Shown here: piece by piece, positions 18,600-19,833 of the stretch
How the letters are laid out: every line of letters starts with the position of its first letter
How positions within the stretch are numbered: the first letter of the stretch is position 1
NCBI RefSeq assembly: GCF_000013205.1
Contig: NC_007775.1
Location: forward strand, 2,749,001 to 2,813,000
Direction: 5' to 3'
DNA length: 64,000 bases
Origin: Synechococcus sp. JA-3-3Ab
GTDB taxonomy: Bacteria; Cyanobacteriota; Cyanobacteriia; Thermostichales; Thermostichaceae
Notes under the pieces: model-generated
What the model was told of the DNA's origin: nothing
Seen by the model: only the letters and a program-made list of their open reading frames with translations
Database searches by the model: none
Translations under genes and position numbers: made by a program

Positions 18600-18975
18600 C
18601 TACCTTAGGCTCATCAAAACGCCGGAGAGAGGAACTTCTTGGGGAGGCAGCAGAGGCACCTCTACTTTCGCCACTTCCTGCTCGTAAATGCCCAGCTGGC
18701 GAGCGGCAGCCGTCGCAATATCCAGATCTCGACCGCGAACAAAAGGGCCCCGAGCCAGAACATCCACCACCACTCTAGGCCTGGGATCCTCAGAATTGGT
18801 CAAAGTCTCCCAAAAACGTGTCCGGGAATACACTGATGAGCCCCACGGATCCCAGGTTCCGCAGAGGGATCTTTCGGCTGAAGTCAGTGGGCTTGGGTTG
18901 GGGCAATGCTCCCAGAAGCCGGCGCGGCTCCTCAAGGGCGAGGGGATCCCGGAGAAATGCAAACCACTGTATCAA
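18600..18975 (-). pseudogene. RlpA-like double-psi beta-barrel relic with frameshift
   Basis: The C-terminal half (18600 to about 18810) reads RVVVDVLARGPFVRGRDLD followed by IATAAARQLGI. This matches the RlpA signature VVVRVNDRGPFVxGRxIDLSxAAAxxLG of septal-ring lytic transglycosylases. Upstream the reading shifts: at the A5 run 18812-18816 (T5 on the coding strand), removing one base would join VFPDTF to WETLTNSED and restore a continuous barrel strand resembling the family's LPFGTxVxVTN. Beyond that the N-terminal part is unrecognisable and lacks the usual AS(W/Y)YG opening and signal peptide. I read it as a truncated, frameshifted remnant; a sequencing error at the homopolymer is the main alternative. 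Confidence 0.5.
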
Positions 18976-19039
18976 TTTCTACATAGTTCTCTACATTCCG
19001 CAGTCTTCGTTAGGGGCTGAGCTAGAGTGTTTCCAGCAG

Positions 19040-19320
19040 GCTCCTGGGGTGGGCTGCCTTTTCAGGAGGCCAAGTGCCGCGACTGATCGCATCAGCGGGC
19101 TGGAGGCACTTGGTTAGCAATTGGCAGGAGTAGCGATGCCAGCATCGCAACGGCAAGCTAGGCGCGAGAACAGCCTGGCCAAGCTTCGCAAGGAACGCCG
19201 GAGGGTAAGCAGAGGATCTAGGCCCAGCGGCCCAAAACATGTTACAGGTTCTCCCCCAGCCTGAAACCTCCGTAGGGGCGAGGGGGCGTACACAGAAGAG
19301 CTTACAGCCGTGTTGGTACC
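19040..19320 (+). ncRNA. Candidate omega (HEARO) RNA relic upstream of an IscB-like fragment
   Basis: A gene-free stretch rich in nested inverted repeats directly before an RRXRR-type fragment, the place where IscB omega RNAs occur. Visible stems: CTCCTG 19041 with CAGGAG 19063; CCAAGTGCC 19070-19078 with GGCACTTGG 19105-19113, enclosing CTGAT/ATCAG; GCGATGC/GCATCGC at 19133-19148; and AGGTT/AACCT near 19225-19272. The 3' end runs into the start codon of the fragment, as known for this RNA class. Identity rests on position and foldability, not on a matched consensus, so the boundaries are approximate. Confidence 0.4.
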
Positions 19321-19582
19321 TATGTTTGCCGTGGATGGGAAAACCCCCCTGATGTTAATCAAACCCAGCCCCGCCAGACGGTGGGTAGCAAGCGGCGAAG
19401 CCACACTCCCCTGGCAGCGAGGTGAGCGGGGCGTGCGGCTGAAAGCAACCAATCGAGTGAGTTTGCAGGAGGTCGCTCCTGGCAAGCAGCTATGGCAAAA
19501 TGCCAACCTAGGGTATTGCAAGTTTTTAACGTTCAACGGTTGGAGGGCACGGCTCCTAACAGCGCCGTGTAATGGTGTGTGA
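19310..19582 (+). pseudogene. Truncated IscB-like protein, RRXRR-domain fragment
   Basis: A 90-codon frame from GTG 19310. Its first 45 residues (MLVPMFAVDGKTPLM, then KPSPARRWVASGEATLPW) resemble the N-terminal RRXRR/PLMP domain of IscB-type, IS200/IS605-associated HNH nucleases, whose members begin VxVVDKxxKPLMPTxPxRARRWLxxGKA. After that the similarity stops; the RuvC and HNH parts are absent and ftrV follows at once. The residual frame ends in TGA overlapping the ATG of ftrV. I infer a nuclease gene cut down by deletion. Overall similarity is short, hence moderate confidence. Confidence 0.5.
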
Positions 19583-19833
19583 TGAAAGTCGGAGATCGAG
19601 TGCGGGTGCGTACCAGCGTGATCGTCTATCACCACCCGGAACATCGCAATCAACCTTTTGACCTCAAAGGTATGGAGGGAGAAGTGACGGCTGTGATCCA
19701 AGACTGGAACGGCCGCCCGATCAGCGCTAATTTTCCCTTTCAGGTGCAGTTTGGGAATAAGTTCCGCGCCCACCTCCAGGCCGACGAGCTGGAGGTGATC
19801 GAGGCGAGCCCTTCCTCCGAGCCTGCGGCCTAG
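19582..19833 (+). CDS. ftrV: Ferredoxin-thioredoxin reductase, variable (alpha) subunit
   Basis: 83 aa. FtrV caps the catalytic subunit FtrC, forming the heterodimer that passes electrons from photosystem I-reduced ferredoxin to thioredoxin. The SH3-like barrel is recognisable from VGDRVRVRTSVIVYHHPEHR, FDLKGMEGEVTAV and FPFQVQF. I choose ATG 19582 over the adjoining GTG 19579. There is no good Shine-Dalgarno sequence; the ATG overlaps the TGA of the upstream relic frame. Its 3' end overlaps the convergent phycobilisome-like gene by 4 bp. ftrC is not in the window. Confidence 0.92.
   Translation: MKVGDRVRVRTSVIVYHHPEHRNQPFDLKGMEGEVTAVIQDWNGRPISANFPFQVQFGNKFRAHLQADELEVIEASPSSEPAA

What the first reader, a model, noticed from the sequence alone, without database searches (positions are those of the whole stretch)
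19040..19582. Possible IscB/omega-RNA relic fused up against ftrV
Seen: a 90-codon frame whose first 45 residues look like the RRXRR/PLMP domain of IscB-type nucleases, preceded by about 280 bp of nested inverted repeats (9-, 7- and 6-bp stems) and no gene. Known: IscB nucleases are guided by an omega (HEARO) RNA encoded just upstream, whose 3' end reaches the start codon. Inference: this is a decayed obligate mobile element that has lost RuvC and HNH domains while the RNA may still fold and be expressed. A surviving guide RNA without its nuclease could be inert, supplied with a protein in trans, or domesticated.
Basis: partly seen in the sequence, partly recalled or inferred. Interest (0 to 1): 0.75.

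Follow-up and report, generated by a model that had tools for sequence, protein, structure and literature searches.

The report
Shrunken IsrB guide-RNA element before ftrV
A roughly 513-base remnant of a mobile element that once encoded an RNA-guided DNA nickase (IsrB) and its guide RNA sits between the ribosome-binding site and the start codon of a photosynthesis gene; it has lost the enzyme's working core and is most likely dead, but it has changed how that gene must be translated.

Summary
The 90-codon frame is an in-frame, internally deleted IsrB (the HNH-less relative of IscB). A profile of IsrBs found here matches it in two collinear blocks, 9-43 and 297-333 of 339, E=1.7e-8; all RuvC and bridge-helix sequence is gone. 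Rfam HEARO and Pfam RRXRR both miss it. A covariance model of the omegaRNA core, built from 39 IsrB loci without the window, finds 19218-19293 as the best hit of the window and the only hit in the genome (23.7 bits). Intact members score 66-102, so the RNA is degenerate. Five congeners have the empty site: the element separates the ftrV Shine-Dalgarno from its ATG. Intact relatives follow the same rule: a left flank enriched in SD sequence and a right flank ATGA, often a gene start, which agrees with the published NTGA motif of DtIsrB. Another cyanobacterium carries 297-bp IsrB-less omegaRNA elements. No IsrB or IscB remains in this genome, so a working guide RNA is unlikely. The relic's stop overlaps the ftrV start (TGATG), so translational coupling is a plausible, untested consequence.

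The parts
18952..19068 (+). Left flank: promoter and 5' leader of ftrV, conserved in five congeners; the Shine-Dalgarno AGGAGG is at 19064-19069
19069..19581 (+). Whole element, about 513 bp, LE to RE (left edge uncertain by up to ~9 bases; right edge fixed by ATGA)
   Evidence: empty site in congeners; LE and RE of the family
19070..19113 (+). Left-end hairpin CCAAGTGCC..GGCACTTGG, equivalent to CAAGTACC..GGGAGCTTG of the G003 element
19115..19217 (+). 5' half of the omegaRNA, diverged; local similarity to the family above shuffles (39 against 27 +/- 2.9)
19218..19293 (+). 3' core of the omegaRNA, degenerate (23.7 bits)
19253..19286 (+). Pseudoknot arms CCCCC (19253-19257) and GGGGG (19282-19286); relatives pair TCCCT/AGGGA or CCCCA/TGGGG at the same columns
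19310..19582 (+). 90-codon frame: internally deleted isrB; its stop TGA (19580-19582) overlaps the ftrV ATG
19340..19444 (+). PLMP-domain block (IsrB profile 9-43)
19445..19555 (+). C-terminal block of the TI domain (IsrB profile 297-333)
19548..19569 (+). Right-end hairpin CACGGC..GCCGTG, shortened relative to the family
19582..19833 (+). ftrV, ferredoxin-thioredoxin reductase variable chain; ATGA at its start is the right-flank motif

Best explanation
A decayed, non-autonomous derivative of an IsrB/omegaRNA (OMEGA) mobile element. An ancestral ~1.3-kb element inserted directly 5' of the ATGA that starts ftrV (its target-adjacent motif), between the Shine-Dalgarno and the start codon. About 750 bp of isrB were lost in frame, joining the PLMP domain to the last ~40 residues, and the RNA and both ends diverged; whether the deletion came before or after insertion is unknown. 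Shown: both protein blocks, the RNA core, the empty site, and the SD/ATG split. Inferred: it was moved by a Y1 transposase in trans, it is no longer a working guide RNA, and ftrV is now translated from a long leader, perhaps by re-initiation at TGATG after the relic frame.
For: IsrB profile, two collinear blocks, E=1.7e-8, next best in window 1.3. Intact relative P0001 matches solved DtIsrB 8dmb at E=5.9e-39 and Pfam RRXRR at 1.9e-36. omegaRNA model R1, trained without the window: best hit in window and only hit in genome. 5' half similarity above shuffles. Empty site in five congeners. The same insertion rule in intact relatives. Internal-deletion (710 bp) and IsrB-less (297 bp) members in G015. 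Many Y1 transposases in this genome.
Against: The RNA hit is weak in absolute terms (E=0.0013 for the window, 0.058 for the genome). The left edge is blurred: the congeners have GGCAAGAC or similar between SD and ATG, so an exact empty site does not fit unless ~8 bp were lost at the left junction. The frame is open for 90 codons, and the pseudoknot columns still pair, so some constraint cannot be excluded. No strain with an intact copy at this site was found.
Confidence: 0.88

Rival explanations
1. Domesticated leader: the relic frame is kept because its translation carries ribosomes to the ftrV start (stop and start overlap as TGATG), replacing the Shine-Dalgarno that the insertion moved ~510 bases upstream. 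This adds a function to the best explanation rather than contradicting its origin.
For: Anti-SD energy before the ftrV ATG is -2.8 here against -9.8 to -10.8 in five congeners; the frame is open through the right end to TGATG; family members normally stop before the right end.
Against: The relic's own start has a weak SD (-2.1 to -2.8); no orthologue exists to test for selection; no expression data; many SD-poor genes are translated anyway.
Confidence: 0.25
2. Still-active guide RNA: the omegaRNA is expressed as part of the ftrV leader and works with an IsrB supplied in trans, for example after horizontal transfer.
For: The pseudoknot columns still pair as 5 G-C pairs; the promoter-side flank is conserved, so transcription through it is likely; IsrB-less omegaRNA elements exist in G015 and standalone omegaRNAs that work with IscB are reported (PMC9581776).
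Against: 23.7 bits against 66-102 for intact copies; one arm of the outer helix is missing and the GUGG loop is changed; no IsrB or IscB in the genome; the guide would no longer abut ATGA.
Confidence: 0.04
3. Chance resemblance: an unrelated short frame and a GC-rich leader.
For: Curated models (RRXRR, HEARO) do not match.
Against: Two independent signals, protein E=1.7e-8 in two ordered blocks and RNA model best in genome, at the expected spacing, on one strand, inside a segment that congeners lack, ending at the family's own motif.
Confidence: 0.02
4. The 90-aa product is a functional small protein (PLMP is IF3-like) that binds RNA.
For: Open frame; PLMP resembles the IF3 N-domain and contacts the omegaRNA 3' hairpins in DtIsrB (PMC9581776).
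Against: The PLMP motif reads PLML and neighbours are changed; no orthologous small frame was found in the relatives searched.
Confidence: 0.04

Closest known systems
IsrB OMEGA nickase and its omegaRNA (DtIsrB, PDB 8dmb, PMC9581776)
   Same: PLMP N-terminus, TI C-terminal end, omegaRNA directly upstream on the same strand, pseudoknot in the RNA core, NTGA-type motif (ATGA) on the right flank.
   Different: RuvC I-III and the bridge helix are deleted; the RNA is degenerate; 513 bp instead of ~1.3 kb.
Standalone omegaRNAs, reported for IscB (cited in PMC9581776)
   Same: Guide-RNA element without its own nuclease.
   Different: IsrB type; still carries both ends of the protein frame; single copy, no effector in the genome.
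297-bp IsrB-less and 710-bp internally deleted elements of cyanobacterium G015 (found here)
   Same: Left end, omegaRNA and right end kept, isrB lost wholly or internally, inserted just 5' of ATGA.
   Different: Those have well conserved RNAs (71-85 bits for the unbroken copies) and the IsrB-less form is multicopy; this one is single and decayed.
HEARO RNA, Rfam RF02033
   Same: Position and role relative to the nuclease gene.
   Different: No match to the Rfam model in the window or the genome.

Membership tests
IsrB | PLMP N-terminal domain | tested here: met
   Profile positions 9-43, part of a two-block match with E=1.7e-8; the motif itself is degenerate (PLML)
IsrB | RuvC I-III and bridge helix | tested here: not met
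   Profile 44-296 absent; hence a relic or derivative of IsrB, not an IsrB
IsrB | C-terminal TI segment | tested here: inconclusive
   Only profile positions 297-333 remain
IsrB | omegaRNA upstream, ending near the start codon | tested here: met
   R1 hit 19218-19293, 23.7 bits, 16 nt before the GTG; degenerate
IsrB | NTGA motif at the right flank | tested here: met
   ATGA of ftrV directly at the right end, as in the relatives
IsrB | RNA-guided nicking | not testable with these tools
   Needs biochemistry; not expected without RuvC
IscB | HNH domain in RuvC | tested here: not met
   Absent here; the closest relatives are mostly 331-351 aa and align end to end with HNH-less DtIsrB
HEARO RF02033 | Match to the Rfam covariance model | tested here: not met
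Non-autonomous IsrB/omegaRNA element | Both ends and RNA kept, nuclease deleted, empty site in relatives | tested here: met
   parallels
Non-autonomous IsrB/omegaRNA element | Mobility (several copies, or a Y1 transposase able to act on its ends) | tested here: inconclusive
   Single copy in the genome; Y1 transposases present, action on these ends not tested

The most novel reading that the evidence does not exclude
IsrB/omegaRNA elements of this clade settle as a rule between a host gene's Shine-Dalgarno and its ATGA start codon (motif = start codon, guide = ribosome-binding region), and at ftrV the shrunken isrB frame has become the leader cistron that hands ribosomes to the gene through a TGATG overlap.
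Probability: 0.2. Interest if true: 0.65.

Novelty: new variant of a known kind. Interest (0 to 1): 0.45.

Why it matters
It documents an internally deleted, IsrB-derived guide-RNA element that standard annotation (Pfam, Rfam) misses, and gives a family-specific RNA model that finds such elements. More generally, the comparison shows that IsrB elements of this clade often sit exactly between a Shine-Dalgarno and an ATGA start codon. That links the published NTGA motif to a concrete niche in genomes, and raises a testable question about how host genes survive such insertions.

Tried and rejected
Rfam gathering and relaxed scans: only chance hits in the segment. Pfam, NCBIfam and PADLOC on the frame: no IsrB match; a weak DUF6207 hit (E=0.015, below cut-off) was rejected. 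DNA search for further copies in the own genome: none. Full-length RNA model R2: only the core is found, so the 5' half rests on pairwise similarity. The site of the G003 IsrB at a nadA-like gene agreed with the right-flank rule, but the left flank was too diverged to use. First alignment A1 had too many gaps for a collection scan. Paper searches for start-codon insertion of IsrB or IscB found no report; the library is partial, so this is not proof of novelty. Symmetric loss of both arms of the outer RNA helix was considered as a sign of structural constraint and rejected: only the 3' arm is clearly missing, the 5' arm may be present.

Full report
OBSERVATION. The frame 19310-19582 and the gene-free stretch before it are as described. 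The 9-bp stem at 19070-19113 is real; the shorter stems are among many. The downstream gene is ftrV (Pfam FeThRed_A, E=9e-37). The genome is one contig of 2,932,766 bp; from memory this is the size of Synechococcus sp. JA-3-3Ab, which I did not verify.

THE FRAME. Rfam HEARO and Pfam RRXRR do not match. A search of relatives with the 90-aa frame gave hits in congener G003 and cyanobacterium G015; in G003 one long frame matched both residues 10-47 and 45-81. The G003 protein (P0001, 332 aa as given) carries RRXRR (E=1.9e-36) and its best solved relative is the nickase DtIsrB, 8dmb, E=5.9e-39. A collection scan brought 40 loci from cyanobacteria, Chloroflexi, Poribacteria and others. A profile of these IsrBs, run on all six-frame segments of the window, ranks the frame first, E=1.7e-8, with blocks 9-43 and 297-333 of 339 in order and in one frame; the next segment has E=1.3. 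So some 250 residues, all of RuvC and the bridge helix, were lost in frame.

THE RNA. The regions upstream of these IsrB genes share a clear RNA. For the 3' core the alignment supports 22 nested pairs, 19 with two-sided changes; with a 5-pair pseudoknot added, 94% of cells pair, against 33-43% for slid controls (that alignment was fitted to the model for the nested pairs, but the pseudoknot was not part of the model). Model R1, built without the window, finds 19218-19293 with 23.7 bits, E=0.0013, best in the window and the only hit in the genome at E<=10 (E=0.058). Other members score 66-102. In the window the pseudoknot columns pair as CCCCC/GGGGG, but the 3' arm of the outer helix is missing and the nearly invariant GUGG loop is changed. 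The 5' half resembles L084 and L082 (score 39 against a shuffled maximum of 27 +/- 2.9, p=0.005 from 200 shuffles). The RNA is therefore homologous and degenerate.

THE INSERTION. In five congeners the ftrV leader runs ..GGAGGGCAAGAC-ATGAA.. or close to it. In the window the SD (19064-19069) and the ATG (19582) are ~510 bases apart. In intact relatives the conserved left end begins with GTCAA, GTCAC or similar, and the right end is followed by ATGA. In 24 of the 33 loci where such an ATGA was found it opens a frame of at least 60 codons, against 24.5% of all ATGA in the same loci (binomial p=7.6e-9); several are recognisable gene starts. The last 20 nt before the left end hold an SD core in 16 of 39 loci against 13% background, peaking 4-20 nt from the edge, with stronger anti-SD pairing than background (p=1.5e-5), whereas the right ends show none on average. 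DtIsrB has a published NTGA preference and nicks ATGA targets (PMC9581776). So these elements tend to lie between SD and start codon. Part of this may be survivor bias, because such insertions spare the coding sequence; my null does not separate the two. The ATGA taken in each locus was the first one at least 30 nt after the conserved C-terminal SWR, a rule fixed after seeing the pattern, so the p-value is descriptive.

LEFT EDGE. GCCAAGTGCC (19069-) aligns with the G003 left end GTCAAGTACC, but congeners have GGCAAGAC or similar between SD and ATG. A loss of ~8 bp between the similar stretches GCAAG and CCAAG at the junction would reconcile these; this is inference.

RELATED MINI-ELEMENTS. 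G015 holds three copies of an element with the omegaRNA and both ends but no isrB: two of 297 bp, one of 398 bp with an extra insert. They lie at different sites and end at ATGA, one after AGGAGCC and before a proC-like start. It also holds a 710-bp internally deleted copy before a cytochrome c-like gene. The window element is thus one of a kind of non-autonomous IsrB/omegaRNA derivative. No IsrB or IscB was found in the own genome, though Y1 transposases are many.

HOW IT LIKELY WORKS. As a mobile or guide system it most likely does not. As part of the host it is a long leader between the ftrV promoter and its start codon. Anti-SD pairing before the ftrV start drops from -9.8 to -10.8 in the congeners to -2.8 here. 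The relic frame ends in TGATG on the ftrV start, so re-initiation could carry translation; this is untested. The relic's own start is also SD-poor, which weakens the idea.

VERDICT. Partly supported and refined: an IsrB-derived, internally deleted, decayed element. Interest is moderate; the insertion rule of the family is the more general lead.

Noticed in passing
L082-L118 right ends: Intact IsrB elements of this clade are mostly followed at once by ATGA that opens a host gene, with SD-like sequence just left of the element.
   Followed up: partly
L124, L125 (1399-1695), L128 (1396-1793): IsrB-less omegaRNA elements at three sites in cyanobacterium G015; L128 has ~100 extra bases in the RNA core.
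   Followed up: partly
L127 1400-2109: 710-bp internally deleted isrB element directly before a cytochrome c-like gene start in G015.
   Followed up: partly
G003:C12:19946-20758 (L083): Second IsrB copy in the congener, 93% identical, matched only from residue 62-63 on.
   Followed up: no
window 18600-18962, minus strand: Frame with a RlpA/DPBB-like match (E=1.9e-6, just below the Pfam cut-off), divergent to ftrV; possibly a diverged or truncated RlpA-like gene. A similar protein seems to lie beside ftrV in congener locus L019.
   Followed up: no
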